Below, one piece after another: positions 15,303 through 49,258 of a DNA stretch of 64,000 nucleotides (position 1 is the stretch's first letter; each line of letters opens with the position of its first letter). The position numbers and the translations under genes were made by a program. The notes under the pieces were generated by a model that worked only from the letters and a program-made list of their open reading frames with translations, was not told the DNA's origin and did not search any database. Origin of the DNA: Gemmatimonadota bacterium (lineage in GTDB: Bacteria > Gemmatimonadota > Gemmatimonadetes > Longimicrobiales > Gaopeijiaceae); assembly GCA_016873995.1 (NCBI GenBank), contig VGVR01000008.1, forward strand, positions 48,768 to 112,767, in the 5' to 3' direction.

Positions 15303-16574
15303 ATGGACTTGGCCTGGATCACACTGATCGCGCTCGGCATCGTCGTGCTCGCGAGCTGCACGACGAAGCTCAATCCCGGCGTGTTGGCGATCGTGCTCGC
15401 GTGGGTCGTGGGCGTGTACATGGCCGAGCCAGGCGGAGAGCCGCTCGGTCTCCGGACCGTGGTATCGGGCTTCCCGACGGACCTGTTCCTCACGCTCACC
15501 GGCGTCACCTTCCTCTTCGCCCTGGCGCAGGGGAACGGCACGCTGGAGCGGGTCGCGGCGGTGGCGGTCAAGCTGTGCAGAGGCAACGCGGGGCTGATTC
15601 CGCTCGCGTTCTTCGCGCTGACCTTCGTGTTCGCCTCGGTGGGGGCGGGGAACATTGCTGCTACCGCGCTCATCGCGCCGACCGCGATGGCCACAGCGCA
15701 CCGCGCGCGCATCTCGTCGTTCCTGATGATGATCATGGTCGGCCACGGCGCCGTGGCGGGCGCCATGTCGCCCGTCGCGCCCACCGGTGTGATCGCCGCC
15801 GGCATCATGCGCGACCGCATCGGCGTCGAAGGCTTCGAGTGGCAGTTCTACCTCGACAACCTCATGGCGAACGTCGTGATCGCCATGGTGGGGTACCTGC
15901 TGTTCGGCGGCTGGAAGCTCTTCCGGGCCCACTCGACCGAGTCGAGTCGGGCGGAGGTGTCGCCCCTCGGCGAGGGTGCGTTCGCGCTCAAGCACAAGGT
16001 CACGCTCGGAGTGCTCGCCGGGTTGCTCGTCTCCGTGATCGGCTTCGACGCCAACGTGGGCATGGCGGCGTTCGCGGGCGGCGGCATCCTCGTGCTCGGC
16101 GGCTTCTCCGACGAGTCGGACGCGATCAAGCGCATGCCGTGGGGCGTGATCTTGATGGTGAGCGGCGTCACCGTGCTCACCGCGCTCCTAGACGAGACCG
16201 GCGGGAGCGAGCTGTTCACCAACCTGGTGGCCGAGATCTCCGGCCCGCGCTCCGTGACCGGCGTCATCGCGTTCATCACGGGCATCATCTCGGTATACAG
16301 CAGCACGTCTGGCGTCGTGCTTCCCGCGTTCTTGCCGATCGCGGCCGGTCTCGCCGACCAGGTCGGCGCGAGCGTGATGGCGGTCGCGTCGTCCATCATC
16401 GTGGGCGGACACTTGGTCGACACGTCGCCCCTCTCGACCATCGGCGCACTCGCGATCGCGTCCGCGGACACGAGCGAGGACCGGCGTGCCCTGTTCAACA
16501 AGGGTCTCGCGTGGGGACTCTCGATGGCGGTGGTGGGGGCGATCTTCTGTCTGCTGTACTTCGGACTGCGTTGA
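15303..16574 (+). CDS. SLC13/MatC-like carboxylate (ion) transporter
   Basis: 423 aa, about 11-12 transmembrane helices with no soluble domain. The pattern (short first helix, FALAQGNGTLERVA near residue 73, the repeated hairpin-type segments ASVGAGNIAATALIAPTAMA and GAMSPVAPTGVIAAGIM, and late ISVYSSTSGVVLPAFLPIA) fits the ion-transporter superfamily (MatC N-terminal domain/SLC13/ArsB). Uptake of a dicarboxylate such as malonate is a typical role, but the substrate is not shown. It lies 74 bp after the MetS-like gene, so an operon with the NSS transporter is possible. CCAGGAC upstream of the ATG can serve as ribosome-binding site. Confidence 0.75.
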   Translation: MDLAWITLIALGIVVLASCTTKLNPGVLAIVLAWVVGVYMAEPGGEPLGLRTVVSGFPTDLFLTLTGVTFLFALAQGNGTLERVAAVAVKLCRGNAGLIPLAFFALTFVFASVGAGNIAATALIAPTAMATAHRARISSFLMMIMVGHGAVAGAMSPVAPTGVIAAGIMRDRIGVEGFEWQFYLDNLMANVVIAMVGYLLFGGWKLFRAHSTESSRAEVSPLGEGAFALKHKVTLGVLAGLLVSVIGFDANVGMAAFAGGGILVLGGFSDESDAIKRMPWGVILMVSGVTVLTALLDETGGSELFTNLVAEISGPRSVTGVIAFITGIISVYSSTSGVVLPAFLPIAAGLADQVGASVMAVASSIIVGGHLVDTSPLSTIGALAIASADTSEDRRALFNKGLAWGLSMAVVGAIFCLLYFGLR

Positions 16575-35019: not shown

Positions 35020-35943
35020 TCACCGCTCCGCGATCACGACGCGGAAGCCGATGAACGGCCTGCGGGCGCCCGGGTCCGCGCCGCCGCGCACCGCCGTGCG
35101 TGCGTTGCGCGGGGGATCGGTGAAGGAGCCGCCCCGCATGACCCCAAGCGCGTCGTCGCGCAGGTCGGGGGACGGGATGTCCAGGCGGTAGGGTCCTGCC
35201 TGAAAGGGGGTGAGCGTCCACTCCCAGACGTTGCCGATCATGTCGAGGAGGCCGTGCGGACACTCGTCGCACGGATAACTCCCCACCGCGCGAGGGGAGC
35301 TGCTCTGGATGTTCGCCCGCTCGGGCCGTAGCCCGTTCCCCCACGGGTAGACGTCGGACCGAAGGCCGCGGGCGGCCTTCTCCCACTCGGCCTCGGTGGG
35401 GAGTGACACCCGGGCGCCGCCTTCGAGAAGTGCCGCCAGCTGCGGTGGTGTAGTGGAGCTCTCGCGCAGCTGGGTATCGAGCCAGCGCGCGTACTCGACT
35501 GCGTCCGGCCAGGTGACGTTCGCGACCGGGTAGTCCGCGGGCGCATCGAGGGCAGCGGGGTCGGTCGGGTAGCTCGTCGCTTCGACAAACGCGCGGAACT
35601 GCGCCACGGTGACCTCGTAGCGGCCCACGTGGAACGCCGAGACTTCGACCATCTGCGGCCCGGTCGTGCCCGCCCAGAGCTCGTTGTCGAAGGCCGTCGA
35701 GTCGAGCTGCGGATCGCTCCCCATCGGGAACGGTCCAGCCGGCACTTCGACGAAGCCGAGCAGCACCTCGTCGGGCAGGGCCCACGCGTCGGCTCGAAAC
35801 GTCACCGCACCGGCAGGCGCCCTGACGACAGGAAGCTCCGTCGCGCCGCGGCCCTCCTGCGATGCGGGGGCGCTCCCCACCGCCCACGCCACGACGGCGA
35901 GGGCACCACCGATGAGCGCTAGCGCGACGCCAGGAGCTCGCAC
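35020..35943 (-). CDS. SUMF1/FGE-fold protein, membrane-anchored, lacking FGE cysteines
   Basis: 307 aa. I start it at the GTG at 35943, preceded by GGAGG at 5 bp; it then opens with a hydrophobic segment (VALALIGGALAVVAWAVGSA) and overlaps the upstream gene by 25 bp. The formylglycine-generating-enzyme fold is obvious: FVEVPAGPFPMGSDP, YEVTVAQFRAFVEAT, NVTWPDAVEYARWL, SLPTEAEWEKAARG, VYPWGNG, GNVWEWT, VMRGGSF and PFIGFRVV. The two copper-binding cysteines that follow RGGSF in true FGE are absent (the text reads TDPPRNARTAVRGG), so sulfatase activation is unlikely. Related proteins are carbohydrate-binding or assist other enzymes. It may serve the membrane protein encoded just upstream. Confidence 0.8.
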   Translation of the reverse strand: MRAPGVALALIGGALAVVAWAVGSAPASQEGRGATELPVVRAPAGAVTFRADAWALPDEVLLGFVEVPAGPFPMGSDPQLDSTAFDNELWAGTTGPQMVEVSAFHVGRYEVTVAQFRAFVEATSYPTDPAALDAPADYPVANVTWPDAVEYARWLDTQLRESSTTPPQLAALLEGGARVSLPTEAEWEKAARGLRSDVYPWGNGLRPERANIQSSSPRAVGSYPCDECPHGLLDMIGNVWEWTLTPFQAGPYRLDIPSPDLRDDALGVMRGGSFTDPPRNARTAVRGGADPGARRPFIGFRVVIAER

Positions 35944-37535
35944 GCGAACCTCCACTGGTGATCGCAGGCGCGGGTGTAGAGCTCGCGCTCGGGTGTGTCG
36001 ACGAGCGTGGCTCTCCCCTCGCGCACCAGAAGGCGCAGATCGAGTGCGCGTGGGTCCGCTCGGACCAGTGCGGGTGGCTCGAGGAGGTTGAGGCATCCCG
36101 GCTGGAAGCGAGCCTCGCACGCGCGCGCGAAGTACTGGCGCCCGAGCTCGCGGTCGGGATCGGTGACGCGGCCCTCCGTCAGGTGACGCCCGAGCTCGTT
36201 GCAGGCCCACCCCGAGTTGTCGGCGCAGTACGAGTATTCGATCTCGAGCAGGCGCGTGCAGGCCGTCGGCCGCTGTTCTTCGCACGCTTGCATCCAGAAC
36301 GGCACGCTGTCGCCCGTGTGCCGTCCATCGGTCCGGCCTGTGGCCGACATCGCACCGAAGAAGGCGATCCAGCCTGCCATGTGGACCAGGTTGAGCCGCG
36401 TGGGCGACCAAGCGGGCCAGGCGCGACTCCACCGCGCCGTCCCCTGGATACGGTGCGCGAGCGCGTCGATCCGCTGCACGCTCAGGTTGAGCAGCGGTAC
36501 GGCGAGTAGCTTGTCGTAGAAGCGCGGCGCCCCGATGGCATCCAGTCCGCTGAAGAGCGCCACCACGCTCGCGCCGTAGAGCAAGCCGAAGAGTGCCTTG
36601 CCGAGCGGGGTCCTGGGCGACGTGGACGGATCGGTGACCAGCAGGTGGAGGCCGAGGAAGACCGCGCTCGGGATCTCCGAGTTGATGAAGTAGGGCACAC
36701 CGGCTGCGGCGAAGAACGCCGCGCTCCATCCGAAGAGGACCGCCGAGGCGAGGCCGGAGACGAGCGTGATGGAGAAGTTGTACATCGCTACCAACCCGAT
36801 CGCGAAGAGCACGAGATAGATCCGCGGCGCCATGCTGAGCGTGGATGCGATCTCCTGGCCCCAAGTCAGGTGGGTCGCATCGGCGACGATCAGAATCAGC
36901 GAGAACGCTCCGAGCGACAATGCCGACGGATTGAAGACGTGCGTCCGTTTGCCCTCGCGGCTCCACGTCACGAACTCCCTTCCCAGCAGCCCGACCGCGA
37001 TCAGCAGGAACTGCAGGTAGAACCAGTCGTCCCGGAACCAGATGAAGAGGTTCGTGCTGAGTACGATGGGGAGCGCGCCGAACCCGAGCGCGTAGGGCCG
37101 TCCGCGAGACCACGCGAGCAGAATCCCGAATGCGTACGCGAAGAGGAGCTGCCCCACGAGCAGCCAGGCGTGCTGGTACACGGGCCGCCAGTACCAGCCC
37201 CAATAGGCGTAGACCGAGAGTTGGAGGCACGCCTGCACGTAGTGCTGGGCCCGTAGCACCACCTCGAAGGCGGGCGAGGGCAGTCGGTCGCGCCCCCGCA
37301 GTACGAGCCAGCCCTGCCAGACGAGGAGGGCCAGCGCCGATCCCAAGAACGAGCCCAGCAGGACAGGATGAGAGCGCACCCTATCCACCGTCGACGCCAT
37401 GGCGAGCGCCACCGTGAACGCCAACGGCACCCAGGAACGCCGAACGGCAGGGACCACCGGTGCCGCAGTGGTCCCGTCCGCAGGTGGGTGCCCGCGCCCG
37501 CGGGCTGCTGGGGAACGCTTGCTCTGCGTTGCCAT
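35919..37535 (-). CDS. RnfD/NqrB-like membrane protein with C-terminal Cys-rich repeat region
   Basis: 538 aa from the ATG at 37535. About ten transmembrane helices span residues 30-370. The central part contains GREFVTWSREGKRTHVFNPSALSLGAFSL, which resembles the FNPS region of NqrB/RnfD-type subunits, the site of covalent FMN in some members; here the acceptor Thr/Ser is not clearly identifiable. After the last helix a soluble tail of about 130 residues has repeated Cys pairs (QACEEQRPTACTRLLEI, YCADNSGWACNELG, RACEARFQPGCLNLL, RACDHQWRFACELL), spaced like Sel1/TPR helical repeats with disulfides. It therefore looks like a redox or quinone-linked membrane protein with a periplasmic repeat domain. 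No other Rnf/Nqr subunit is nearby. Confidence 0.6.
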   Translation of the reverse strand: MATQSKRSPAARGRGHPPADGTTAAPVVPAVRRSWVPLAFTVALAMASTVDRVRSHPVLLGSFLGSALALLVWQGWLVLRGRDRLPSPAFEVVLRAQHYVQACLQLSVYAYWGWYWRPVYQHAWLLVGQLLFAYAFGILLAWSRGRPYALGFGALPIVLSTNLFIWFRDDWFYLQFLLIAVGLLGREFVTWSREGKRTHVFNPSALSLGAFSLILIVADATHLTWGQEIASTLSMAPRIYLVLFAIGLVAMYNFSITLVSGLASAVLFGWSAAFFAAAGVPYFINSEIPSAVFLGLHLLVTDPSTSPRTPLGKALFGLLYGASVVALFSGLDAIGAPRFYDKLLAVPLLNLSVQRIDALAHRIQGTARWSRAWPAWSPTRLNLVHMAGWIAFFGAMSATGRTDGRHTGDSVPFWMQACEEQRPTACTRLLEIEYSYCADNSGWACNELGRHLTEGRVTDPDRELGRQYFARACEARFQPGCLNLLEPPALVRADPRALDLRLLVREGRATLVDTPERELYTRACDHQWRFACELLASR

Positions 37536-37693
37536 GGATGCTCGGCAGTGGGGTCGGCCCGTAGCCGGCCGACGAGTTGGACTGCGCTGTGCCGTCCGAT
37601 CGGGGGGCGGAAGGCTAGTCGTCCGGGCGACAGGGGGCAAACGGAATCAGGCGCCATCGAGGTGAGCAGTTGGCGGCCCCAGGCCAGGTCCCC

Positions 37694-37743: not shown

Positions 37744-37846
37744 GTCGAATCCCGGCCCGTAACTCTGCAGCGAAGCCGGGAAGCCGCCCGCGTCGGGCGC
37801 CGACGCTGGATGTGGCCTCGGCCAGACCTCCTGCCCGGAGCGTACC

Positions 37847-39328
37847 ATGAAGAGGCGAGATTTCGTAAGGACTTCAGTCGGCGCGGGATTCGTTCTCGCG
37901 ATCCCCCATCGGGACCTCTTCTCGAGGCGCCAGGCTCGAGCGTCGCGCGGCACCATGTTCGACAAGATCTGGGATCAGCACGCGATCGCGGATCTGGGCG
38001 GTGACGACTACCTGCTCCAGGTCGATCGCTGCATCGGCGGTGGACCGGCGCAGCTCCGCAGGATGCTCGCGCAGGGCGTGGAGATCGCCCACCCGGAGCT
38101 GTTCTTCAACGTGCCCGACCACTCTGTCTCTACGGACCCGAGCCGCTACACCGATCCGGAGCTGCGCGTAATCGACGAGGACTACCAGGGCGCGGACGAT
38201 CTGCGGGCGATGGGCTTCAATCTGTGGAGTCAGTTCGATCCGCGGTACGGGATCCAGCACATCGTCGGACCGGAGACGGGCCTCAGCCAGCCGGGCATGC
38301 TGTTGTGCGCGGGCGATAGCCACACCTGCACACACGGTGCGCTCGGCCTGATCTCGTGGGGTGGCGAAGACACCGACCTCGTGCTCCGCACCGGCACGGT
38401 CATCCGCCACCGTCCCCTGACCATGCGCGTGAACGTGGTGGGCACGCTCGGGCGGGGGCTGCGGGCCAAGGACATCATCTTGAAGATCATCGCGGATCTG
38501 GGCACGGACAGCGGCAACGGCTACGCGGTCGAGTACGCCGGACCTGTCGTGCGGGCGCTGCCGCAGGAAGGGCGCTTCAGCATCTGCAATCTCGCCGTCG
38601 AGATGGCGTCACTCACCGGCATGGTCGCCTCCGACGACACGACGTACGAGTGGCTCAGGGGCCGTGAGTACGCGCCGTCGGAGGAGTACTGGGATCAGGC
38701 GGTGGCGCAGTGGCGGGAGCTGCACAGCGACGACGACGCGGTGTTCGACCGTGAGGAGACGATCGACATGACGGGCGTCGAGCCGATGGTGACGTGGGGG
38801 ATCAACCCGGAGCACGCGATCCCGATCACGGGGCGGGTACCGGATCCGGATACGGCTCCGGCGGTGAAGCGCGAGACGTACCGTCAGGCGATTGCGTACA
38901 GCGGGCTGAGGCCGGGCGCGCCGATTCTGGGGACGCCGGTGGACGAGGTGTTCATCGGATCGTGCGTCGAGAGCCGCATCAGCGACCTGCGTGCTGCGGC
39001 GGAGATCGTGCGCGGCCGTCGCGTGGCGTCGAACGTGCAGGCGGCCTGGGTGGTTCCGGGCTCGAACGCGACGAAGCGCCAGGCGGAGGCCGAGGGCCTC
39101 CACCGGATCTTCCTCGAGGCGGGCTTCGAGTGGCGTGAGGCGGGGTGCTCGAAGTGCTATGGCCCGAACGGCGACTTCGTGGCACCGGGGCGCCGCTCCG
39201 TCTCCAACTCGAACCGCAACTACATCGGCCGCCAGGGCAGGGACACGAAGACGAACCTGGCCAGCACGACCACCTGCGCGGCCTCGGCGATCGAGGGTCG
39301 TATCGCCGACGTGCGCCGTTACCTCTAG
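37847..39328 (+). CDS. LeuC-like [4Fe-4S] hydro-lyase with Tat-type leader
   Basis: 493 aa, aconitase/isopropylmalate isomerase large subunit. From residue 37 (MFDKIWDQH) it aligns with the start of LeuC. [4Fe-4S] ligands are Cys373 (FIGSCVESRISDLRAA), Cys434 and Cys437 (GCSKCYGPNGD), in normal spacing; AGDSHTCTHGALG and TSRNFEGRQG-like (NSNRNYIGRQG) motifs are present. The first 36 residues are extra: MKRRDFVRTSVGAGFVLAIP is a twin-arginine leader. This start has a ribosome-binding site (CGGAG, 8 bp), whereas the internal ATG at 37955 has none, so export seems real. It is followed by LeuD-like genes at 39.3 and 40.1 kb. No other leucine-pathway gene is present; a periplasmic hydratase or isomerase of another hydroxy-acid is inferred. 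Confidence 0.82.
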   Translation: MKRRDFVRTSVGAGFVLAIPHRDLFSRRQARASRGTMFDKIWDQHAIADLGGDDYLLQVDRCIGGGPAQLRRMLAQGVEIAHPELFFNVPDHSVSTDPSRYTDPELRVIDEDYQGADDLRAMGFNLWSQFDPRYGIQHIVGPETGLSQPGMLLCAGDSHTCTHGALGLISWGGEDTDLVLRTGTVIRHRPLTMRVNVVGTLGRGLRAKDIILKIIADLGTDSGNGYAVEYAGPVVRALPQEGRFSICNLAVEMASLTGMVASDDTTYEWLRGREYAPSEEYWDQAVAQWRELHSDDDAVFDREETIDMTGVEPMVTWGINPEHAIPITGRVPDPDTAPAVKRETYRQAIAYSGLRPGAPILGTPVDEVFIGSCVESRISDLRAAAEIVRGRRVASNVQAAWVVPGSNATKRQAEAEGLHRIFLEAGFEWREAGCSKCYGPNGDFVAPGRRSVSNSNRNYIGRQGRDTKTNLASTTTCAASAIEGRIADVRRYL

Positions 39329-39346
39329 GACGACGAGCGAGCACCC

Positions 39347-40021
39347 ATGCAAGCGAGACAGGCGCAGTTCGAGGTGCCGGACCGGGGCGGCAACCGCTTC
39401 GTCCGGCACTCGGGGCTCGCGGCCCCGTACATGTACGACAACGTGAGCACGGACGTACCTGCTCCGCCTGCGGAGGCGGCCGGCGTCGCTCACCTGGGCT
39501 TCACTGGAGGCGACCTAGCGTTCGCCAACCTGCGGTGGAACTCGGACGGAACGGAGAAGCCCGACTTCGTCTTCAATCAGGAGGCGTATCGCCGGGCCTC
39601 GATCATGATCGTTGGCCTGAACTACGGCACGGGCAGCTCCCGCTCGACCGCCGTCACGCTGCCGTTGGCGGCGTGGGGGGTGAAGGCGTACATCGGGCAG
39701 AGCTTCGGCCCGATCTTCGTGACGAATGCGCTAGCGTACGGGGTCGTGACGGTGCAGCTCCCGAGGCCCACGGTCGATCGCGTGGCGGCGTGGGTGCGCG
39801 CCAACCCCGGCGTCGAAATGACCGTGGACCTCCAACGGTTGGTCATCGAACTCCCGGGCCAGCAGCCCATCCCCTTCACGTACAACGAGCGGTTCCGCAA
39901 CAAGCTCCTGAATGGTCTCGACGACATGGAGGAGATGGAGCCGCACCTCGCCGCGGCCGAAACGAAGCGGGAAGAGGACTTGAGGCAGCGCCCTTGGGTG
40001 TACAACTACCACGGCCCCTGA
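39347..40021 (+). CDS. LeuD-like small subunit 1
   Basis: 224 aa, aconitase swivel domain. The N-terminus RFVRHSGLAAPYMYDNVSTDVPAP follows the LeuD pattern FxxHTGLVAPLxxxNVDTDxIIP. PDFVFNQEAYRRASIMIVGLNYGTGSSR is the substrate loop: Gly96-Ser97-Ser98-Arg99 keep the catalytic Ser and substrate-binding Arg of GSSRE, but the next residues are ST instead of EH. SFGPIFVTNALAYGVVTVQL is the conserved C-terminal strand-helix. It starts 18 bp after the LeuC-like gene and is presumably its main partner. It has no signal peptide, so it would have to travel with the Tat-borne large subunit. The longer-than-normal tail ends RPWVYNYHGP, echoed in both paralogues (RPWLYDT, RPWLYGT). Confidence 0.82.
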   Translation: MQARQAQFEVPDRGGNRFVRHSGLAAPYMYDNVSTDVPAPPAEAAGVAHLGFTGGDLAFANLRWNSDGTEKPDFVFNQEAYRRASIMIVGLNYGTGSSRSTAVTLPLAAWGVKAYIGQSFGPIFVTNALAYGVVTVQLPRPTVDRVAAWVRANPGVEMTVDLQRLVIELPGQQPIPFTYNERFRNKLLNGLDDMEEMEPHLAAAETKREEDLRQRPWVYNYHGP

Positions 40022-40045
40022 GGCGCTCGAAGCAAGCGAGCAGAC

Positions 40046-40079
40046 GTGAGGGGCCCTCGGGATTCAGGGGGCCCCTCAC
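40046..40079 (+). terminator. Perfect 11-bp hairpin between LeuD-like genes
   Basis: GTGAGGGGCCC (40046-40056) and GGGCCCCTCAC (40069-40079) are exact complements with a 12-nt loop, 24 bp after the stop of LeuD-like 1. No strong T-run follows. It may stop or attenuate transcription before the second LeuD-like gene. Confidence 0.55.
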
Positions 40080-40100
40080 TCGTCTTCATCGGGGGTGACG

Positions 40101-40811
40101 ATGCCTCAGGCCCACCCGGGTTTCGTTCAGTTCACGCGCCACACCGGTATCGCGGCGCCTTTCCTGCACGATGATTTCGAGGGCGAGCTCATCGCCCCGC
40201 TGGGTCCCGAGCTCCTCGATCTCCACGAAGTTCACATGGACCGGCACACCGCCGTGTTGGAGACGCATGCGCACGACGGGTCCTGGCCTGGGCAGCACGC
40301 GTTTCAGGGGTTCCGCTACGCGCTCGACGGCTCGGAGATTCCAGAGTTCGTGCTCAATCAGGAGCCGCACCGCGACGCGTCGATCCTCGTCACGGGCCGG
40401 AATTTCGGTCAGGGCAGCCTCCAGGCGTTCGCTGCGATACGACTCCGGCAGTGCGGCATGCGGGTCATCATCGCGCCGAGCTTCGGGCCGGTCTTCTACG
40501 ACGACTGCTTCGACTACGGTCTGTTGCCGGTCACGCTGACCCAAGCCGAAGTCGATAGGATCGCGGAGCAGGTGGGTGCGAATCCCCGATTGCCGATCAC
40601 CGTCGACCTCGTCGGGCAAGTGGTCACGCGAGCGGACTTCGGGCCCATACGCTTCCAGATGGACGCGCGGCGGCGCATGAACCTCCTCCAGGGCTCCGAT
40701 CAATCCCTGGAGGAGCGTCTCCAGCACCAGGACAGCGCGGCCGCCGCCCGGGAGCAAGATCGGAGGGTACGGCCGTGGCTCTACGACACGCGGCGCGAGC
40801 CCGGTCGCTAG
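40101..40811 (+). CDS. LeuD-like small subunit 2, altered active-site loop
   Basis: 236 aa; ATG at 40101 with GGGGG just upstream (an in-frame GTG at 40095 is the alternative). QFTRHTGIAAPFLHDDFEGELIAP marks the LeuD N-terminus, followed by PEFVLNQEPHRDASILVTGRNFGQG. In the loop that normally reads GSSREHA this protein has Gly105-Ser106-Leu107-Gln108 (GSLQAFA): the first Ser is kept, the Arg is gone. IIAPSFGPVFYDDCFDYGLLPVTL is the normal C-terminal motif. It ends RPWLYDTRREPGR, like its paralogues. Changed substrate specificity, or an inactive regulatory subunit, is inferred. It lies 79 bp after LeuD-like 1, behind a hairpin. Confidence 0.75.
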   Translation: MPQAHPGFVQFTRHTGIAAPFLHDDFEGELIAPLGPELLDLHEVHMDRHTAVLETHAHDGSWPGQHAFQGFRYALDGSEIPEFVLNQEPHRDASILVTGRNFGQGSLQAFAAIRLRQCGMRVIIAPSFGPVFYDDCFDYGLLPVTLTQAEVDRIAEQVGANPRLPITVDLVGQVVTRADFGPIRFQMDARRRMNLLQGSDQSLEERLQHQDSAAAAREQDRRVRPWLYDTRREPGR

Positions 40812-40891: not shown

Positions 40892-43282
40892 TCACATCCG
40901 CAGCAGTCGGTTCACCTTGATGACGAGGCCACGGCTCACCAGCTCGGACCAGCGGTCGAGCGAGTCGGTGTCACGGGCCTCGGTGTAGACCACGAAGAGC
41001 TCGCTTCCGGGCGCCCACTCCCACCGCAGGCGGAAGTCCGAGCTGAAGCTGTCGCTCCCGGAGTTGTACTGGACGAGGCTGCTCACGAACATGCGCGGGG
41101 TGAGCGTATACGTGAACCTCGTCACGGCCACGTGCTGGTCGAAGTGACCTTGCGGGAGGTCGATCCAATTGAACGTCACGCTCGGCTCCATCGAGAGCCG
41201 CGGCGTGATCTCCGCCCGGCCCTGGCGAAGCGCGACCGACGTCAGCGTGCCGTCGTAGTAGTCCCCTCGCTGCACCGAGACGGTGGCCGAGAACGGACGC
41301 TGCGGGCCAAAGGTGAAGAAGGCCTGAGCATCCCGAAACGAGTAGCGGCCCGAAGGAATCAGCGCGCCTGAGATGGTCTCGTTGCGCACCAGGTTCTCAT
41401 AGGTGTCGCCGAGGCTGACGCCGAACTGGTCGCTGTTCTCGAACTCGACGCGGAGTTGGCTCCTCAGCTCGCGGCTCTCGACGTAGCGCAGGCTGTCGTT
41501 CTCGACGTAGTCCGCGTCGGCCTGCAGTGTCACCTGGCGCAGCCACGCCATGGAGCGGGGGCGGGGAGCCACCCTTGCGGATACGCTGGTCTGCCGATAG
41601 CCGGTTCGCCTCGCGAACCCGATCTCGGGGTTGAAGTTGCCTCCCACTACGAGATGAGCGACGCGCGCGCCCCACTCGCTCGCGTCCCAGGTGAACTGAC
41701 CGCGATAACTCGCGTCGCGCTCGGTGAGTCCGTCGGTTCGGGTCTCGGCGTAATAGGCCAACAGGCCGACCTCGCTCGACGGGGCGAGCCAGGCGTCGAG
41801 GCCCCAGGTCTGGTTGGACCCAGCGGCGGCCTTCACCGAGCGGGAGCGGTTGCCGACCAAGAAGCCTACGCTGCTGCGGTCGAAGACGTCGCGCCTGAGG
41901 CGGAGCACCGAAAAGTTCGTGGGCTTCTCCAACACGGAGGGCTCGTCGTCGGTCTGGACGTCGACCACGCCCACGTCGAACGAGCCGACTTTCCCGGTGA
42001 CGCGGGCCCCGGCGATGATCGGCACTGGCTGGCCGCGGCGGAGGCCGATCCCCCGGCTGTAGAAGAGCGAGGGCGCGTTACCTCCGCCCCCTCCGCCCCC
42101 TCCGCCCTCGCCACCGCCCGTCCTGCCGCCGATGCCGAAGTTGAAGATGCCCTGACTCTCCAGAAAGAACTCGCGCTTCTCGGGAAAGAAGAGGCTGAAG
42201 CGGGTGAGGTTGACCTGCTGCTCGTCGGCCTCGACCTGTGCGAAGTCGGGGTTGAGCGTGAAGTCGACGGTCAGGTTCTGTGTGAGTCCGTACTTGATGT
42301 CGAGCCCGGCGTCCGCATCGAGGTCGTTGGTGCGCGTGGGGACGGCGGCCAGGTCCGTGCGCAGCCCCGAGATCGCGTAGGGCTTCAGCTCCAGATTGGC
42401 GCGCGAAGGCGGGGCCTCGATGCCCACGAGCGTGCCGTAGTTGGAGACGCGGAACGTGCCCTGCGACCCGTTGGGGCCTGCCGCAGCGATCGGCACAGGC
42501 GTGAGGTAGTCCCACTCGTTTCGGCGGGCCACAGACCGTCGCATCTGTATGCCCCACAGCTGCTCCCTCCCCGGACGGTAACGCAGCGTGCGGAAGGGGA
42601 TCGCCATCTCCACGGTCCATCCGCCTTCGAAGCGCCCCGTGCGGATCTCGGTCACGGGGTTCCAGTCCCGGTTCGGGTTCCCCTCGTTCGTGATCTGCTG
42701 GTCGGTGAAGCCGCCGAGGGCGTTCACGTAGAAGCCGACCGAGTTACGCCGGTCGTAGTAAGTGTCGAGGTAGACACCGAAGTTGTCGTTCACCCGCAGC
42801 TGTTGCGCGTCGCGGCGCATCTCGTTCGCGATCCACGCGCTCTCGCCGCCGGAGTCCCACACGCGAGCCGCCACGTAGACGTTCTCGTCGTCGAACACGA
42901 TCCACGCCTCGGTGCGCTCCGAAGGAGCGTCTCCCTCGACGGGCAGCGTCTGGATGAAGCCCGTGATCGGCGGAGTGGCGGCGTACACGCTTTCGTCGAG
43001 CACGCCGTCGACGCGGTGCGCCTCGCGTACACGCACGGCGCGAACGGTTGCGCCGCCTGTTGCGTCGCGGCTCTCCACCGCGGGGGGCACCGGCGGTGGT
43101 GGGCCCAGCAGCTCGATTCCCTCGGGAAGGGTCCACGTCGCTGTCGACGAGTCCGTTGGCGTAACACGCACTTGAGCCACCGCGGCGTGCGTCGACACGA
43201 GCTGACCGAGCGCCGAGATGACGACCCACGCCGCGCACACCCGGGTGAGGGGCACGCGGGCCCTCGAATTCGGAAGACTCAC
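40892..43282 (-). CDS. DUF5916 / CBM9-like outer-membrane beta-barrel protein
   Basis: 796 aa, GTG start at 43282 overlapping the stop of LeuD-like 3 by 4 bp. A signal peptide (about 15-37) is followed by a CBM9-like sugar-binding-type domain (VDGVLDESVYAATPPI, EAWIVFDDENVYVAARVWD, NDNFGVYLDTYYDRRNSVGFYVN, WTVEMAIPFRTLRY). A beta-barrel follows, typical of DUF5916, with LTQNLTVDFTLNPDFAQVEADEQQVNLTRFSLFFPEKREFFLE as its hallmark region. A polyglycine loop near residue 400 is probably surface-exposed. The C-terminus ends in an aromatic-poor strand (LVIKVNRLLRM). An outer-membrane channel or receptor for an organic ligand is inferred. It closes the long minus-strand operon. Confidence 0.85.
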   Translation of the reverse strand: MSLPNSRARVPLTRVCAAWVVISALGQLVSTHAAVAQVRVTPTDSSTATWTLPEGIELLGPPPPVPPAVESRDATGGATVRAVRVREAHRVDGVLDESVYAATPPITGFIQTLPVEGDAPSERTEAWIVFDDENVYVAARVWDSGGESAWIANEMRRDAQQLRVNDNFGVYLDTYYDRRNSVGFYVNALGGFTDQQITNEGNPNRDWNPVTEIRTGRFEGGWTVEMAIPFRTLRYRPGREQLWGIQMRRSVARRNEWDYLTPVPIAAAGPNGSQGTFRVSNYGTLVGIEAPPSRANLELKPYAISGLRTDLAAVPTRTNDLDADAGLDIKYGLTQNLTVDFTLNPDFAQVEADEQQVNLTRFSLFFPEKREFFLESQGIFNFGIGGRTGGGEGGGGGGGGGNAPSLFYSRGIGLRRGQPVPIIAGARVTGKVGSFDVGVVDVQTDDEPSVLEKPTNFSVLRLRRDVFDRSSVGFLVGNRSRSVKAAAGSNQTWGLDAWLAPSSEVGLLAYYAETRTDGLTERDASYRGQFTWDASEWGARVAHLVVGGNFNPEIGFARRTGYRQTSVSARVAPRPRSMAWLRQVTLQADADYVENDSLRYVESRELRSQLRVEFENSDQFGVSLGDTYENLVRNETISGALIPSGRYSFRDAQAFFTFGPQRPFSATVSVQRGDYYDGTLTSVALRQGRAEITPRLSMEPSVTFNWIDLPQGHFDQHVAVTRFTYTLTPRMFVSSLVQYNSGSDSFSSDFRLRWEWAPGSELFVVYTEARDTDSLDRWSELVSRGLVIKVNRLLRM

Positions 43283-43851
43283 TTCGTGCCGTAGAGCCAG
43301 GGTCGCCTCGCGCGGTCGGCTGCGCGGGCCTCGGCGACCCGATCGACGTGCTCGAGGATCTGATCCTGATCCGTGATGCCGTTGAGGAGCTTGTAACGCG
43401 CGCGTGGATCGGCGATGAAAGGAATCGCCTCCTTACCCGGCACATCGATGATCTCCTTGTCGAGGTCGATGGTCATCGTCGCGCCCGCAGGATCCGTCAT
43501 GCACGCTGCCAAACAGTCGATGACGGCTGGATCGAGCGGAACGGGCAGTACGCCGATTCCCACGCACCGGTCGAACACCCGTGCCTCGAACCCGGGCGCG
43601 AGCACAGCCCGGACGCCGAGCGCCTCCAAGCGGGCGAGCGTCGTCTCCAGAGCGAGCGTCTGGAAGATCTCCCAGGCGATCAGAATCGACGCGCCCTGCA
43701 CGTTGGCGAACACCGCGTCGGGCGCGAGGATCTCGCCGTCTCGGCCCCGCAGTTGCACTCCGGCCACGAGGCCCGTATGGCGCACGAAGCGCGGAGCACT
43801 CCCTCCCTGAACGGTCGGCAGCGTTCTCAAGCGATCATCACCAGGGTCCAC
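43279..43851 (-). CDS. LeuD-like subunit 3, degenerate active site
   Basis: 190 aa if started at the GTG at 43851; a TTG at 43830 would avoid overlap with the TPR gene. The N-terminus APRFVRHTGLVAGVQLRGRDGEILAP is LeuD-like, and VRAVLAPGFEARVFDRCVGIGVLPVPLD matches the C-terminal strand-helix. The part that normally carries GSSREHA reads VQGASILIAWEIFQTLALETT, so Ser and Arg are gone and the sequence between is shortened. It still ends RPWLYGTK like the other two. It is coupled to the TPR gene before it and to the DUF5916 gene after it (GTGA overlap). Catalysis by itself seems excluded; a structural or regulatory partner of the LeuC-like protein is inferred. Confidence 0.7.
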   Translation of the reverse strand: MDPGDDRLRTLPTVQGGSAPRFVRHTGLVAGVQLRGRDGEILAPDAVFANVQGASILIAWEIFQTLALETTLARLEALGVRAVLAPGFEARVFDRCVGIGVLPVPLDPAVIDCLAACMTDPAGATMTIDLDKEIIDVPGKEAIPFIADPRARYKLLNGITDQDQILEHVDRVAEARAADRARRPWLYGTK

Positions 43852-44602
43852 CCGGATACGGCTCCAACCACGGCCGAGCGTCCGGCCTGCGGGACCACAT
43901 GATAGCACGGATGAGGCCCTCCACGTCGGTCCGCACGTTGGCGAGGAGCGCGCGGGCCTCGGCCTCGTTGAGTGAGCCCGGGTCGTCGCCGGCTTCGGCC
44001 TCGCGCTCGATGGCGCGCCGCCCCCGTACCTGCGCCATTTCGGGAATCACGACGCCTTCCCCTTCCTGCTGGCGCGTGCCCTCGTCGGAGCTCGGCGTGG
44101 CGCTCGCGGCCACGCTCTGCATCAGCGAATCCAGCATCGCTTGGGCCAGCGCGAGGTTCCAGCGCGCCGACTCGTCCGCGGGGTCCAGCCGGATGGCCGC
44201 ACGGTTGCTGCCGATGGAAGCGCCCAGGAGAAAGAGCGCCGAATCCGGAGTCGACACCTCGATGGCCCGGTTCAGGAAGAGGAGTCCGAGGTTCCGGTTG
44301 CCCCTTTGGGCTACGGATGAGTCCGCGGCCGCGGCGGCGGCGCGCAAGGCGCTCTCCGCGCCCGGTCCTCCCAGCCCGAGCAGGCCCGTTCCGAGATTGT
44401 ACGTGGCAACCCCCGGGGCCCCCTCGGAGCTGGCGATCTGTTCGTAGACCCGCACGGCTGCGTCCTCCTGGCCGCTGCGGTGGAGGCGGTTCCCTCGTTC
44501 GAGGCTCGCGCGCTCTGCGTACGATGCCGTGATCAGGAGGCCGAGGGCGATCAGGCACGCGATGCCGGCTGGCATCCGCGTCGTGAGCCACGGGAGTCTC
44601 AC
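43838..44602 (-). CDS. TPR protein, BatC-like
   Basis: 254 aa from the GTG at 44602, which overlaps the stop of the preceding VWA gene (GTGA) and follows GGAGG. One N-terminal transmembrane segment (GIACLIALGLLITASYA) precedes about three TPR repeats (SLERGNRLHRSGQEDAAVRVYEQI, GVATYNLGTGLLGLGG, ARWNLALAQAMLDSLM). A low-complexity Glu/Ala tail and EAEARALLANVRTDVEGLI follow. Position after two VWA-domain genes and architecture correspond to BatC of the Bat (Bacteroides aerotolerance) operon. Inner-membrane anchored, facing the periplasm; likely complexed with the VWA proteins. Confidence 0.75.
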   Translation of the reverse strand: MRLPWLTTRMPAGIACLIALGLLITASYAERASLERGNRLHRSGQEDAAVRVYEQIASSEGAPGVATYNLGTGLLGLGGPGAESALRAAAAAADSSVAQRGNRNLGLLFLNRAIEVSTPDSALFLLGASIGSNRAAIRLDPADESARWNLALAQAMLDSLMQSVAASATPSSDEGTRQQEGEGVVIPEMAQVRGRRAIEREAEAGDDPGSLNEAEARALLANVRTDVEGLIRAIMWSRRPDARPWLEPYPGGPW

Positions 44603-45627
44603 GCAGGCCTCCGCACGCGAAGCGAGACGCTGCGGGCAGGCAGCCTCACGTCGAACAGACCTTCGAGGAGGAGGCCGACGAGCGCCGCCACGATGAGTAG
44701 GCCGGCTGGGTCGTAACCCGTCCACCAAGGCCCGGTCGTTTCCGACGGACCCAGCGCGGCCGCGAGGCCGTCGACTGCCCCCGCATCACCTGCTTCGACG
44801 AAGCGTCCGCCACCGAGCCGGGCGATGCGCCCGAGCAGCTCTGGGCGGGCGTGGGACACGCCAACTGCCCCGCTCGCGTCGAGCACCGGCGCGCCGAGCT
44901 GATAGGGCGCGTCCGGCATCACCATGCCGGAGCCCTCGGCCGTGCCGACCGAAATCGTGTGCACGCGGATCCCGCGCGCCGCCACGGCTCGGGCCTCTAC
45001 CTGGATGGCGTCGTCGGGCTCGCCGGTGTCACCGTCGCTGATGAGCACGATCGATCGAGCTTCTCCGGGGGCCGCCTCCGTCCAGAGCGCGCCGGCCTCA
45101 CGTATCGCATCGGAAAGGAGTGTCCCCGGGTCGTGCGCGCTCGCGATCGTCGGGGTGACGCCGCCGAGGAAGTGCCGCACCACCTCGAGCTCCGGCGTCG
45201 GCGGGGCGAGGGGGTACGCGGTTCCCGAAAAGAGCAGGAGGCCTACCTCGTCCCCTTGGAGCGCGTCGACGAGCGTACGGGCCGTTTCGACCGCCTGAGA
45301 CAGCCGCGTGGGCTCGACGTCCACGGCCTGCATCGAGGCCGACACATCGATCGCGATCACCACGCTCGGCGTGACCGGTGACGGCGCCGATGGCCATGCG
45401 GGACCGGCGGCTGCGCCGGCCGCAGCCAAGGTCGCGATCGTGAGGAGAAAGAGGCGCTCGAGCGGAACGCGATAGAGGTCGCTCGGGGACAGCCGTTGGA
45501 CCGCGGTCCGTCCACCGAGGAAAGCTCCTAAGTTGCGGCGACGGCGATGGTGGCGCCACGACGCAAGCGCGCCCAGGGCCGCCAGCAGTGCTCCAGCCTG
45601 GAGGTACCACGCGCTCTCGAACGTCAC
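44599..45627 (-). CDS. VWA-domain membrane protein, BatB-like
   Basis: 342 aa from the GTG at 45627, overlapping the stop of the first VWA gene (a GTG at 45642 is the alternative). Two N-terminal helices (WYLQAGALLAALGALASW and LFLLTIATLAAAGAAAG), a VWA domain with the MIDAS motif DVSASM (about residue 95), the Thr in SGTAYPL and the Asp in ISDGDTGEPDD, then a C-terminal helix (AGLLIVAALVGLLLEGLF). This is the BatA/BatB layout: membrane ends with a periplasmic metal-dependent adhesion domain. Part of a tightly coupled operon. MoxR and DUF58 partners usual for Bat operons are not in this window. Confidence 0.83.
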   Translation of the reverse strand: MTFESAWYLQAGALLAALGALASWRHHRRRRNLGAFLGGRTAVQRLSPSDLYRVPLERLFLLTIATLAAAGAAAGPAWPSAPSPVTPSVVIAIDVSASMQAVDVEPTRLSQAVETARTLVDALQGDEVGLLLFSGTAYPLAPPTPELEVVRHFLGGVTPTIASAHDPGTLLSDAIREAGALWTEAAPGEARSIVLISDGDTGEPDDAIQVEARAVAARGIRVHTISVGTAEGSGMVMPDAPYQLGAPVLDASGAVGVSHARPELLGRIARLGGGRFVEAGDAGAVDGLAAALGPSETTGPWWTGYDPAGLLIVAALVGLLLEGLFDVRLPARSVSLRVRRPA

Positions 45628-46625
45628 GGCACGAGGCTCCACCGAGACCCGCGCAGGAGGGCTTCGAGGCCGATGGCGATCAGCGCGAAGAGAAGCAGCC
45701 AGACTTGCAGCGATGTGCGTACCGGCACCTGCGTCGTCACTTCGACGGGTGCCTCGAGCTCGCTGATGGTGCGGTAGATCGAGTCCAGAGCTGCCTCACC
45801 GGAGGCGCGGAAATACTGCCCGCCCGTGACCTCCGAGATCGCCGACAACACGCCCTCCATCTGGGCCTCCACCTCGCTCAGGCGGCGCAGGTTCGCGGCG
45901 CGCAGGGCAGGGGACATGCCCTCGAAGTCGGGCTCGCCGACCAGCGCGATGGAGTGGACCCGTACGCCGAGCGCGGCAGCGCCCCGTGCCGCGCGCAGCG
46001 GGGTTACGCCCTGTCCGTTGTGCGCGCCATCGGTGAGCAGCACGATCACGCGCTCCTCGCGCTCGGACTCGAGGAGGCTCGCGAGGGACGTGACCACGGC
46101 GGCGGCGATGTCCGTCCCGTCGAGCACCAGCTGCGGCTGCAGCGAGGTGACTCCGGAGACGATGAGTCCCGGGTCGGTGGTGTTCGGCACGCGTTGTACC
46201 GCCTGCCCGGCGAACGCCACGAGGCTCAACTCGTCAAGTCGTCGCCCCTCGGCGAAACGCGTGGCCGCGCGGCGGGCAACGGACATGCGTGAGTCGTCGT
46301 TGTCCATGTCGTCGGCGAGCATCGACGTCGAGATGTCCACGGCGATGGCGAGGCCCTTCCCCCTGAGGCTGCTCTCCTCCTCGAAAAGGACCCTCTGCGG
46401 ATGTGCGAGGGCGACCACCAGTGACGCCAGGGCCGTCACTCGGAGCACTCTGGGAAGCCAGAGCACCAAGCCGACCTGAAGGCCCCCCGACTCCGGTGGT
46501 CCGTGGGCCTCCCCCCGCGGGTGGAAGACGCCCCCACCCGACAGAGGCCACACCAGGAGCAGCCAGGCGGGCACCAGGAGTAGGAGCTGGAGGAGCTCGG
46601 GCCGGACGAACTCCACCGACGTCAT
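45624..46625 (-). CDS. VWA-domain membrane protein, BatA-like
   Basis: 333 aa from the ATG at 46625. N-terminal helices (LLQLLLLVPAWLLLVWPL, LRVTALASLVVALAH), VWA domain with MIDAS DISTSMLADDM (about residue 95), DGTDIAAAV and LLTDGAHNGQG, and a C-terminal helix (LQVWLLLFALIAIGLEALL). The sequence GGQYFRASGEAALDSIYRTISELE is typical of BatA. It forms a pair with the next gene, with which it shares a GTGA overlap. The preceding hypothetical gene ends 42 bp upstream. Bat proteins are linked to envelope stress or protein assembly; the exact role is unknown. Confidence 0.85.
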   Translation of the reverse strand: MTSVEFVRPELLQLLLLVPAWLLLVWPLSGGGVFHPRGEAHGPPESGGLQVGLVLWLPRVLRVTALASLVVALAHPQRVLFEEESSLRGKGLAIAVDISTSMLADDMDNDDSRMSVARRAATRFAEGRRLDELSLVAFAGQAVQRVPNTTDPGLIVSGVTSLQPQLVLDGTDIAAAVVTSLASLLESEREERVIVLLTDGAHNGQGVTPLRAARGAAALGVRVHSIALVGEPDFEGMSPALRAANLRRLSEVEAQMEGVLSAISEVTGGQYFRASGEAALDSIYRTISELEAPVEVTTQVPVRTSLQVWLLLFALIAIGLEALLRGSRWSLVP

Positions 46626-47626: not shown

Positions 47627-49258
47627 CTAGGCGCTGGCCGCCGCGCTTCTCGCCGCGACCCGTCCGAACAGCGAGCACCGGCCGAGCCCGTGCTGCGGGA
47701 AGCCGCCCATGGCCTCGCCGCAGCAGTAGAGGCCCGCAATGGCCTGGCCTTGCAGGTCGATCACTCGACAGCGCGTGTCGACGCGTAGCCCGCACAGGGT
47801 GTCGTGGAGAATCGGTGTCGACCACGCAGCATAGAACGGGGGTCGTTGGATCTTGTACTGAGGCGTCGGCTTGCCGAAGTCTCCGTCCGTGCCCGAATCG
47901 ACGAAAGAGTTGTAGCGCGAAACGGTTTGCTGGAGGGTCGAGCCCTGCATCCGCAGCGTCTGGTAAGGGTTGCGGATGCGGCCGGCGAGCTCGCTCAGTG
48001 TATCGGCGCTGAAAAACCATCCGTCCGGGTCCACGTTCGGCGGCCGGGGATCCCACTCCTGTCGCGCGACGGCATCGGCGTCGAAGATGGCCCAGATCGG
48101 TCCGCCGCCGTTCAGCTTGTTCGGATCTCCGCTCCACGCGAAGCAAGCAGCGAAGAAGTCATGCCCCCCGTCCATCTCGTTGTGGAATCGCACGCCCGTC
48201 TGCTTCACGAGGATGCAGTTCTGCCAGTTCACGTTCGTGAGCCCCGAGGCGCGGATCTTGTCGAAGATGGGGCTGTCAGGCTGCCAATGAAGGCTCGAGT
48301 ACCCCCACTGACATCCAATGTGGGCCGTCTTCGAGATCCAGTTACCGGCCTCCATGGACTGGCTCGCGGTGCCCCACACCGCCGCCCCGAGCTTCATCGC
48401 CGCGATCTCGCCGTCCGCCGTCTGCTTGGAGTACGGCTCGCCCGCGACCTGGTACTCTTCGGTGAGTCGTGGGTCGAACATCCTTCTGAACTGCACATTG
48501 CTGGTATGTCCTCCGGTGGCCAGAATGACGCCCCCCGTGGCGCGGATCCGGACCCGTCTTCCCTGGGTCGTTGCTACGAGCCCGAGTACCCGCTTCGACC
48601 CGGGATCCTGCACGAGCTCCGCCATGCTGTGTTGCAGCAGGATCTGCGCACCCTTGGCCCGCGCGCTCTTCTCCAGCGCCCGCACGAGTCCCGAGCCCCG
48701 CCGTGTCGGCTCCGAGGTGATCAACTCCTCGTAGACCGGCCACTGGAGGGTGCGGCCGTTTCGCGAGTCTTCTCCTGCCACTTCATCTTCGAAACGCACG
48801 CCGTTCGCCACCATCCACTCGAAGGTCTCGGCGCTGAGGTCCGCGAACACCCGGGTCAGGTCGCGGTCGGTGAAGCGCGACTCCAGGTCGTCGGGTCGGA
48901 TCCAGTACTCGAACACCGCATCGGCCGAGTCTTCGACTCCCTGCCGGCGCTGCCGACTCGTTCCGCCGCCGAGGTTCACGCGGCCGCCACTCACGATCCC
49001 GTGCCCACCGCAGTCGGAGTTCTGCTCGACGATGATGACCGATGCGCCGCGGTCGCGCGCTTCCACCGCCGCCGAGAGTCCGGATACGCCCGCCCCAGCG
49101 ATGACGACGTCGGCGGTCATGTCCCAAGCCTGCTGCTGCGACTCGGCGGCCACGGGATCCTTTGCCACCGCGAGGGCAGTGGCTCCGAGTCCCGCGGTGG
49201 CGCCGGTGCGGACGAAGTCGCGCCTGCTGATCGATGACGGTGGCGTATCCTTGCTCAT
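47627..49258 (-). CDS. Tat-exported FAD-dependent oxidoreductase, fumarate reductase/ketosteroid-dehydrogenase type
   Basis: 543 aa; the start follows AGGAGG. A Tat leader SISRRDFVRTGATAGLGATALAV is followed by the FAD Rossmann motif VVIAGAGVSGLSAAVEARDRGASVIIVEQ (residues about 49-77). NSDCGGHGIVSGGRVNLGGGT follows. The capping-domain region includes RGSGLVRALEKSARAKGAQILL and GGVILATGGHTSN; the C-terminal FAD segment is AGLYCCGEAMGGFPQHGLGRCSLFGRVAARSA. This is the fumarate reductase / 3-ketosteroid-1-dehydrogenase / urocanate reductase superfamily. The fumarate-reductase Arg/His set is not clear, so a dehydrogenase of another organic substrate is more likely. It heads the long minus operon that ends in the DUF5916 protein. 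Confidence 0.83.
   Translation of the reverse strand: MSKDTPPSSISRRDFVRTGATAGLGATALAVAKDPVAAESQQQAWDMTADVVIAGAGVSGLSAAVEARDRGASVIIVEQNSDCGGHGIVSGGRVNLGGGTSRQRRQGVEDSADAVFEYWIRPDDLESRFTDRDLTRVFADLSAETFEWMVANGVRFEDEVAGEDSRNGRTLQWPVYEELITSEPTRRGSGLVRALEKSARAKGAQILLQHSMAELVQDPGSKRVLGLVATTQGRRVRIRATGGVILATGGHTSNVQFRRMFDPRLTEEYQVAGEPYSKQTADGEIAAMKLGAAVWGTASQSMEAGNWISKTAHIGCQWGYSSLHWQPDSPIFDKIRASGLTNVNWQNCILVKQTGVRFHNEMDGGHDFFAACFAWSGDPNKLNGGGPIWAIFDADAVARQEWDPRPPNVDPDGWFFSADTLSELAGRIRNPYQTLRMQGSTLQQTVSRYNSFVDSGTDGDFGKPTPQYKIQRPPFYAAWSTPILHDTLCGLRVDTRCRVIDLQGQAIAGLYCCGEAMGGFPQHGLGRCSLFGRVAARSAAASA

What the first reader, a model, noticed from the sequence alone, without database searches (positions are those of the whole stretch)
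37847..40811. Tat-exported LeuC homologue with its own LeuD-like subunits
An isopropylmalate-isomerase-type large subunit with intact [4Fe-4S] cysteines carries a 36-residue twin-arginine leader, supported by the only good ribosome-binding site. LeuC/aconitase enzymes are normally cytoplasmic. The Tat system can export folded Fe-S proteins, so a periplasmic hydro-lyase is plausible. No leuA or leuB is present; neighbours are secreted redox enzymes.
Basis: partly seen in the sequence, partly recalled or inferred. Interest (0 to 1): 0.75.

Follow-up and report, generated by a model that had tools for sequence, protein, structure and literature searches.

The report
Tat-tagged LeuC enzyme with leaderless partners
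Besides its normal leucine-pathway enzyme, this bacterium encodes a relative whose conserved twin-arginine leader is predicted to ship it out of the cytoplasm, probably dragging along small subunits that have no export tag of their own; that would put an aconitase-type, likely iron-sulfur, enzyme in a place where we found none reported.

Summary
Window 37847-39328 encodes a LeuC/aconitase-family large subunit with all three cluster cysteines and a 36-residue twin-arginine leader. The leader is no start-codon artefact: 83 of 84 homologues with an N-terminal extension carry RRxF, 0 of 107 other LeuC loci do, and in a tree of the core alone the leader proteins are one side of one branch (100/100). 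The genome has an ordinary leuABCD set elsewhere, so this is a separate enzyme.

D1 (39347-40021) keeps the active-site motifs. D2 (40095-40811) and D3 (43279-43908, minus strand) belong to families that lost them (SSR in 0 of 40 and 0 of 16 rows). None of 120 LeuD relatives shows an export leader, so D1 would have to hitchhike, as in PaoABC. PQQ dehydrogenases lie within 3 kb of leuC in three of four genomes; in the fourth, one lies directly before D2.

Export, cluster content and substrate are untested. Verdict: new variant of a known enzyme kind.

The parts
37837..37840 (+). GGAG ribosome-binding site, 6 nt before the leader ATG
   Evidence: sequence; GGAG-like sites before the leader ATG in 4 of 4 genomes
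37847..37954 (+). twin-arginine leader, 36 codons: KRRDFVR plus hydrophobic stretch
   Evidence: 83 of 84 extended homologues have RRxF; codons 1-16 have no non-synonymous difference from G003 at pS 0.67, though the leader as a whole changes faster than the core (pN/pS 0.42 v 0.25); low-confidence appendage in the AlphaFold model
37955..39328 (+). LeuC/aconitase-type core; cluster cysteines at 38963-38965, 39146-39148, 39155-39157
   Evidence: PF00330 402 bits; NCBIfam PRK12466 549 bits, cut-off 531; C373/C434/C437 invariant in the 45 rows of A1
39347..40021 (+). LeuD1: small subunit with NVSTDV and GTGSSR motifs, no leader
   Evidence: PF00694; LeuD structures 2hcu, 3h5h; 80 D1-type rows, 78 with SSR; next to leuC in 4 of 4 genomes
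40095..40811 (+). LeuD2: LeuD-like paralogue with GQGSLQ in place of GxGSSR, no leader
   Evidence: 0 of 40 D2-type rows have SSR; copies of 58% identity or more only in G000, G003, G036 of 121 family genomes
43279..43908 (-). LeuD3: shortened LeuD-like paralogue without the TD and SSR motifs (start uncertain); its end overlaps the listed start of the DUF5916 gene by 4 bp
   Evidence: PRK01641 59.8 bits, below its cut-off of 167; AlphaFold pLDDT 84.9, best PDB matches LeuD at E 1e-9; relatives P0122-P0136
32839..34977 (+). PQQ dehydrogenase B; a G036 relative lies directly before LeuD2
   Evidence: PF01011; 87% to G003; G036 C115, 58% over a fragment cut by the contig end
11205..13298 (+). PQQ dehydrogenase A; its G003 counterpart is divergent from leuC and starts 0.4 kb from it
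   Evidence: PF01011; 85% to G003 135929-138097
35919..37640 (-). membrane protein weakly like RnfD/NqrB, divergent from leuC
   Evidence: PF03116 at 24 bits, below its cut-off of 27.7; 77% in G003
40892..43282 (-). DUF5916/CBM9-type protein, conserved neighbour
   Evidence: 76% in G003

Best explanation
A second LeuC-type large subunit with intact cluster cysteines carries a clade-wide twin-arginine leader and is therefore predicted to be folded and loaded with a [4Fe-4S] cluster in the cytoplasm, to bind its leaderless LeuD1 small subunit there, and to be exported with it by Tat as a likely hitchhiker pair. Shown: the leader and its conservation, the cysteines, the D1 active-site motifs, leuC-D1 adjacency in four genomes, and the lack of a leader on the LeuD-like proteins. 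Inferred: export, cluster content, and that LeuC-D1 is the active pair. In the periplasm the pair would add or remove water on a 2-hydroxy di- or tricarboxylic acid, supplying or consuming a compound that the co-located PQQ dehydrogenases and c-type cytochromes oxidise. LeuD2 and LeuD3, which look like LeuD but have lost the catalytic motifs, would be structural or docking subunits, with D2 the candidate link to PQQ dehydrogenase B. The substrate is unknown; it is probably not isopropylmalate, because the genome has a separate leuABCD set and the LeuD1 loop after the TD motif differs from the canonical one.
For: Leader: 83 of 84 extended homologues have RRxF; 0 of 107 other LeuC loci pass the leader rule; leader rows are one side of one branch, 100/100, in a core-only tree; codons 1-16 have no amino-acid change at pS 0.67 against G003; ribosome-binding site before the leader ATG in 4 of 4 genomes; three homologues (P0083, P0087, P0103) have a lipobox-like AAC or IAC after the h-region, picked by eye from 8 rows that a pattern flagged; TatC is encoded. 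Hitchhiking: no LeuD relative of 120 exceeds hydropathy 1.5 over 12 residues in its first 35, against 54 of 83 RRxF LeuCs; leuC and D1 overlap by 4 bp in G171 and lie 3-18 bp apart in the other three. Separate role: leuA, leuB, leuC on C7 score over their NCBIfam cut-offs, with a PF00694 gene behind them. Periplasmic context: PQQ dehydrogenase within 3 kb of leuC in G000, G003, G171 and directly before D2 in G036; multihaem cytochromes in G003 and G036.
Against: No localisation or activity data. The window leader has no unmistakable signal-peptidase site. P0020 is extended but lacks RRxF; P0007 starts at the internal Met. The leader as a whole changes faster than the core, as signal peptides do but also as a dispensable tail would. 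At a looser cut of 1.2, 13 of 120 LeuDs pass the hydropathy rule against 78 of 83 RRxF LeuCs; in the five highest-scoring LeuDs, by eye, the stretch is the conserved H-x-GLAA segment of the LeuD fold itself. Exposed [4Fe-4S] clusters are oxygen-sensitive (recalled). The system is rare: 4 of 395 sampled phylum genomes. PQQ dehydrogenase genes are numerous in three of the four genomes (52, 31, 51 matched pieces; 8 in G171), so linkage in G000 alone is weak; G171 has about 7 such genes, two within 10 kb of leuC. G036 has no PQQ match on the leuC contig, and G171 has no D2. Which LeuD pairs with LeuC is inferred.
Confidence: 0.62

Rival explanations
1. LeuC is exported by Tat but works alone or as a tethered protein; the LeuD-like proteins stay in the cytoplasm and do something else, for example regulate the canonical enzyme or hold LeuC in check before export.
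For: No LeuD relative shows an export leader; D2 and D3 lack the active-site motifs; D3 sits behind a vWA/TPR gene run, not beside leuC; lipobox-like leaders in three homologues.
Against: D1 keeps SSR in 78 of 80 rows and is next to leuC in 4 of 4 genomes; a LeuC without LeuD lacks the SSR side of the aconitase active site (recalled); D2 in G036 lies between a PQQ dehydrogenase and a lipoprotein with a CxxCH motif (by eye; no Pfam match for the latter).
Confidence: 0.2
2. The leader acts as an uncleaved membrane anchor or is a relic; the enzyme works at the inner face of the membrane as a cytoplasmic hydro-lyase.
For: No clear signal-peptidase site in the window leader; the leader as a whole changes faster than the core; the nearest leaderless relatives (48-54% identity) look like plain cytoplasmic LeuCs; [4Fe-4S] chemistry is easier in the cytoplasm (recalled).
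Against: R3, R4 and F6 are invariant in the 45 chosen rows and RRxF is in 83 of 84 extended homologues, which a mere anchor would not need; codons 1-16 show no amino-acid change against G003.
Confidence: 0.13
3. Start-codon artefact: the true start is Met37 and the leader is an upstream accident.
For: P0007 begins at the internal Met.
Against: Leader conserved across a clade down to about 50% identity, with ribosome-binding sites before it in 4 of 4 genomes and no GGAG-like site just before Met37 in the window.
Confidence: 0.02

Closest known systems
LeuCD, 3-isopropylmalate dehydratase (bacterial two-subunit type)
   Same: Aconitase-family large subunit, three cluster cysteines, separate small subunit with TD and GSSR motifs, adjacent genes
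   Different: Twin-arginine leader; below the TIGR00170 leuC cut-off (452 v 560 bits); not with leuA/leuB; second gene beside a canonical set; extra LeuD-like proteins without the active-site motifs
PaoABC, E. coli aldehyde oxidoreductase (PMC4273604; search listing and start of abstract seen)
   Same: Leaderless partners ride with a Tat-tagged subunit as a ternary hitchhiker
   Different: Unrelated enzyme chemistry; hitchhiking here is predicted only
LeuC-type relatives without leader from Reyranella, Betaproteobacteria and Bradyrhizobium-named proteins (L008-L015, P0093-P0120)
   Same: Nearest leaderless rows, 48-54% identity
   Different: No leader; L015 sits with a methylisocitrate-lyase-like gene, a CoA-transferase-like gene and a Bug-type receptor by eye, a cytoplasmic catabolic setting
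DmdAB, 2,3-dimethylmalate dehydratase (recalled; no paper found)
   Same: LeuCD-like hydro-lyase used in catabolism rather than leucine synthesis
   Different: Cytoplasmic (recalled); assignment not tested here

Membership tests
Aconitase superfamily (PF00330 large subunit) | Profile match over the whole domain | tested here: met
   402 bits, positions 1-463 of 463
Aconitase superfamily (PF00330 large subunit) | Three cysteines that hold the [4Fe-4S] cluster | tested here: met
   C373, C434, C437 invariant in the 45 chosen rows; which cysteines bind is recalled
Aconitase superfamily (PF00330 large subunit) | Binds a [4Fe-4S] cluster and catalyses hydration/dehydration | not testable with these tools
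   needs purified protein
LeuC, isopropylmalate dehydratase (equivalog) | Score over the TIGR00170 leuC cut-off | tested here: not met
   451.9 bits against 560.25; the canonical copy of this genome scores 757.7; the broader subfamily PRK12466 is met, 549 v 531
LeuC, isopropylmalate dehydratase (equivalog) | Gene company of leuA and leuB | tested here: not met
   leuA and leuB are beside the other leuC at C7; I saw none in the ORF tables of the window, not all of which were profile-searched
LeuD small subunit (D1) | TD and GSSR active-site motifs | tested here: met
   NVSTDV and GTGSSR; of 80 D1-type rows, the window's own included, 78 have TD and 78 have SSR
LeuD small subunit (D2 and D3) | TD and GSSR active-site motifs | tested here: not met
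   SSR in 0 of 40 D2 rows and 0 of 16 D3 rows, two of which have gaps there; window's own included; LeuD fold predicted for D3
Tat substrate | RR-x-F-[hydrophobic]-K/R motif followed by a moderately hydrophobic stretch near the N-terminus | tested here: met
   KRRDFVR; hydropathy 1.6; 83 of 84 extended homologues have RRxF
Tat substrate | Signal-peptidase site at the end of the leader | tested here: inconclusive
   no unmistakable AxA in the window leader; three homologues have a lipobox-like site by eye; no SignalP/TatP run was available
Tat substrate | Tat-dependent export | not testable with these tools
   TatC is encoded; no experiment
Tat hitchhiker pair | Partner subunits without own leader, encoded together | tested here: met
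   0 of 120 LeuD relatives above hydropathy 1.5, 13 above 1.2; leuC-D1 adjacent in 4 of 4 genomes
Tat hitchhiker pair | Joint export of the complex | not testable with these tools
   needs fractionation

The most novel reading that the evidence does not exclude
An aconitase-superfamily enzyme has moved out of the cytoplasm once, in a single clade, as a folded Fe-S heteromer: Tat-tagged LeuC carries a catalytic LeuD and one or two LeuD-like subunits that gave up catalysis to dock the hydro-lyase onto a PQQ-dehydrogenase/cytochrome chain, forming a periplasmic hydroxy-acid pathway whose substrate the cell never has to import.
Probability: 0.3. Interest if true: 0.82.

Novelty: new variant of a known kind. 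Interest (0 to 1): 0.63.

Why it matters
Aconitase-type hydro-lyases are, as far as we recall, cytoplasmic or organellar enzymes whose exposed [4Fe-4S] cluster is built and repaired inside. A clade that has kept a Tat leader on one would show that such a cluster can be used outside the inner membrane, and would add a hydro-lyase to the mainly redox cargo of Tat. The conserved LeuD paralogues without catalytic motifs make a concrete, testable case of small subunits re-used as structural parts. Where a source names these proteins in the list it calls them isopropylmalate dehydratase, so leucine-pathway reconstructions in these bacteria can be misled.

Tried and rejected
Start-site artefact: rejected. 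Leucine biosynthesis: disfavoured, a leuABCD set exists at C7. D2 as a second catalytic small subunit: disfavoured, no SSR in 40 of 40 rows. D3 as a non-homologous ORF: rejected, LeuD fold. A published Tat-exported aconitase or LeuC: none recognised in the listings (2 of 2 papers listed; 17 of 17; 20 of 29; 12 of 561; 10 of 20; 10 of 105). The one paper read, in passages only (PMC6110883), predicts an extracellular 'aconitase family' protein in a plant pathogen. One search (dimethylmalate dehydratase) found no paper; (PQQ) was not useful. The genome-contig scan (80 loci kept, near relatives of the window possibly left out) brought only leaderless LeuCs. Scans centred on other phyla were not obtained. 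My first leader count used a faulty filter that called 50 rows fragments; one search replaces it. Shared contig lengths suggest C-D1-D2 linkage in metagenomes (33740 and 3487), but one pair (974) is too short to hold both genes, so I use them only as hints. No tool names the organism; one homologue is labelled Longimicrobiales.
Full report
What is there. The window holds a LeuC/aconitase-family gene at 37847-39328 followed by two LeuD-like genes at 39347-40021 and 40095-40811. A third LeuD-like gene lies at 43279-43908 on the minus strand. It matches no Pfam model and PRK01641 at 59.8 bits, below that model's cut-off of 167, but its AlphaFold model (pLDDT 84.9) finds solved LeuD structures at E about 1e-9. 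The large subunit scores 402 bits to PF00330 over the full domain, 549 bits to the broad subfamily PRK12466 (cut-off 531), and 452 to the leuC model TIGR00170 (cut-off 560), so it is a LeuC relative rather than a certified LeuC. Both D1 and D2 score about 137 bits to PRK01641, below its cut-off of 167.

The genome also has a standard set. Searches of the own genome gave three PF00330 genes and four PF00694 hits: one long aconitase-type frame on C31, an ordinary LeuC with LeuD on C7, and the window's own. On C7 leuA, leuB and leuC stand in a row and exceed their NCBIfam cut-offs (711 v 532, 451 v 353, 758 v 560 bits).

The leader is real. One search listed the best 120 of 7738 homologues; 108 cover the start of the core. 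84 of these have 25 or more residues before it, and 83 of the 84 have RRxF, most often KRRDF[ILV][KR]; the exception is P0020. The 24 without a leader are P0007, which starts at the internal Met, and 23 proteins at 51-54% identity. A maximum-likelihood tree of 65 rows without the leader columns (31 of the 83 RRxF rows plus the window; 8 of 24 leaderless homologues, 24 loci and the canonical copy of this genome) puts all leader rows on one side of one branch, support 100/100 and all of 200 bootstrap trees. Codons 1-16 differ from the congener G003 at no non-synonymous site at pS 0.67; against G036 and G171 pN is 0.15 and 0.08. The leader as a whole changes faster than the core (pN/pS 0.42 v 0.25 against G003), as expected of a signal peptide with a conserved n-region. 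All four genomes have a GGAG-like site before the leader ATG. Three homologues end the leader in a lipobox-like cysteine by eye (P0083, P0087, P0103); the looser pattern flagged five more. In the AlphaFold model residues 11-30 are the least confident part (blocks of 43 and 39), and 37 of 46 ten-residue blocks of the core reach 80; the loop with C434 and C437 is poorly modelled (blocks of 56 and 62). TatC is encoded.

Distribution. With the 45-row profile, leader-type LeuC scores 887-913 bits in 4 of 395 sampled genomes of the phylum; the next hits there are ordinary LeuC at 594 bits or less. In the family it is 4 of 121. Leaderless relatives in two proteobacterial genomes score 693 and 666. 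The trait is thus sporadic in the genomes held here, while the protein set is rich in it.

Three kinds of LeuD. The 120 best of 1196 relatives of D1+D2 fall into 80 nearer D1 and 40 nearer D2, the window's own included. D1 rows keep TD in 78 of 80 and SSR in 78 of 80 (two have SAR). D2 rows have SSR in 0 of 40 (SLQ in 33, SQQ in 7) and mostly an EGE-like motif instead of TD. The 16 D3 rows have SSR in none (two have gaps there). Being conserved in this altered form, D2 and D3 are not simply decaying copies. D2 copies of 58% identity or more occur in 3 of 121 family genomes, all three among the four with the leader LeuC; the fourth, G171, has none. No LeuD relative of the 120 exceeds a mean hydropathy of 1.5 over 12 residues in its first 35, against 54 of 83 RRxF LeuCs and 0 of 24 leaderless LeuCs. 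At a cut of 1.2 the counts are 13 of 120, 78 of 83 and 2 of 24; in the five highest LeuDs the stretch is, by eye, the conserved H-x-GLAA segment of the LeuD fold itself. That the SSR serine and arginine are catalytic and substrate-binding is recalled from aconitase work.

Neighbourhood. The window and G003 share ten genes of this region at 57-87% identity in a shuffled order: LeuC 81%, D1 83%, D2 69%, two PQQ dehydrogenases 85% and 87%, the RnfD-like membrane protein 77%, the protein beside it 57%, DUF5916 76%, a cytochrome-like protein 69% and a 331-residue protein 65%; two further pairs are weak (37% and 32%). In G003 one PQQ dehydrogenase starts 0.4 kb from leuC, divergently. In G171 two of about seven PQQ genes lie within 10 kb of leuC. 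In G036 leuC-D1 and D2 are on different contigs, and D2 lies between a relative of PQQ dehydrogenase B (58%, cut by the contig end) and a lipoprotein with a CxxCH motif (by eye, no Pfam match). Multihaem cytochromes (72% alike) accompany G003 and G036. D3 follows vWA and TPR-like genes in the window; in G036 a LeuD-like gene follows relatives of those genes, with an N-terminus like that of the D3 family, though its BLAST hits are best to D1-type genes. PQQ genes are abundant in three of the four genomes, so the linkage is suggestive, strongest in G171 and G036.

How it most likely works. Tat moves folded proteins, and leaderless partners can ride with a tagged one; PaoABC is the documented ternary case (PMC4273604, listing and start of abstract). 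The same window has a [2Fe-2S] subunit with a twin-arginine leader by eye and leaderless molybdenum and FAD partners (1286-5418; PaoA model 140 bits, below its cut-off of 322), so this genome probably uses the trick elsewhere. I infer that LeuC gets its cluster and D1 in the cytoplasm and that the pair is exported. There it would act on a hydroxy acid in concert with PQQ dehydrogenases. D2 would dock or shape the complex. The substrate is open: the loop after the TD motif (PAPPAEA in D1, IIPKQFL in the canonical copy) argues against isopropylmalate, although the G171 D1 loop (IIAPINP) is nearer the canonical form.

Limits. Nothing here measures location, cluster or activity. The cleavage site is unclear. 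Claims that this is unreported rest, in an open-access library only and with capped lists in four of the six.

Noticed in passing
window 1286-5418 (-): Aldehyde/xanthine-dehydrogenase-type cluster: [2Fe-2S] subunit with a twin-arginine leader by eye (4771-5418), MoCo (2310-4778) and FAD (1286-2299) subunits without one; a likely second hitchhiker complex in the same window.
   Followed up: partly
window 43279-46625 (-): LeuD3 follows a TPR-like and two vWA genes (BatABC-like, name recalled); a LeuD-like gene follows relatives of these genes in G036 too. Why a LeuD-fold protein sits there is unexplained.
   Followed up: partly
G000, G003, G036 whole genomes: Very many PQQ-dehydrogenase-type matches (52, 31 and 51 pieces) against 8 pieces in G171.
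   Followed up: no
window 35919-37640 (-): Membrane protein weakly like RnfD/NqrB with a cysteine-rich tail; near PQQ dehydrogenase B in the window and in G003.
   Followed up: no
window 47627-49258 (-): FAD-binding oxidoreductase with its own twin-arginine leader by eye (SRRDFVRTGATAG).
   Followed up: no
G036 C195 and C311 (L174, L173): Two further LeuD-like genes beyond D1, D2 and the one beside the other LeuC on C39.
   Followed up: partly
P0083, P0087, P0103: Leader LeuCs with a lipobox-like site by eye, so a subclade may be anchored lipoproteins.
   Followed up: no
window 15303-16574 (+): MatC/CitMHS-type di- or tricarboxylate transporter, a possible clue to the substrate class.
   Followed up: no
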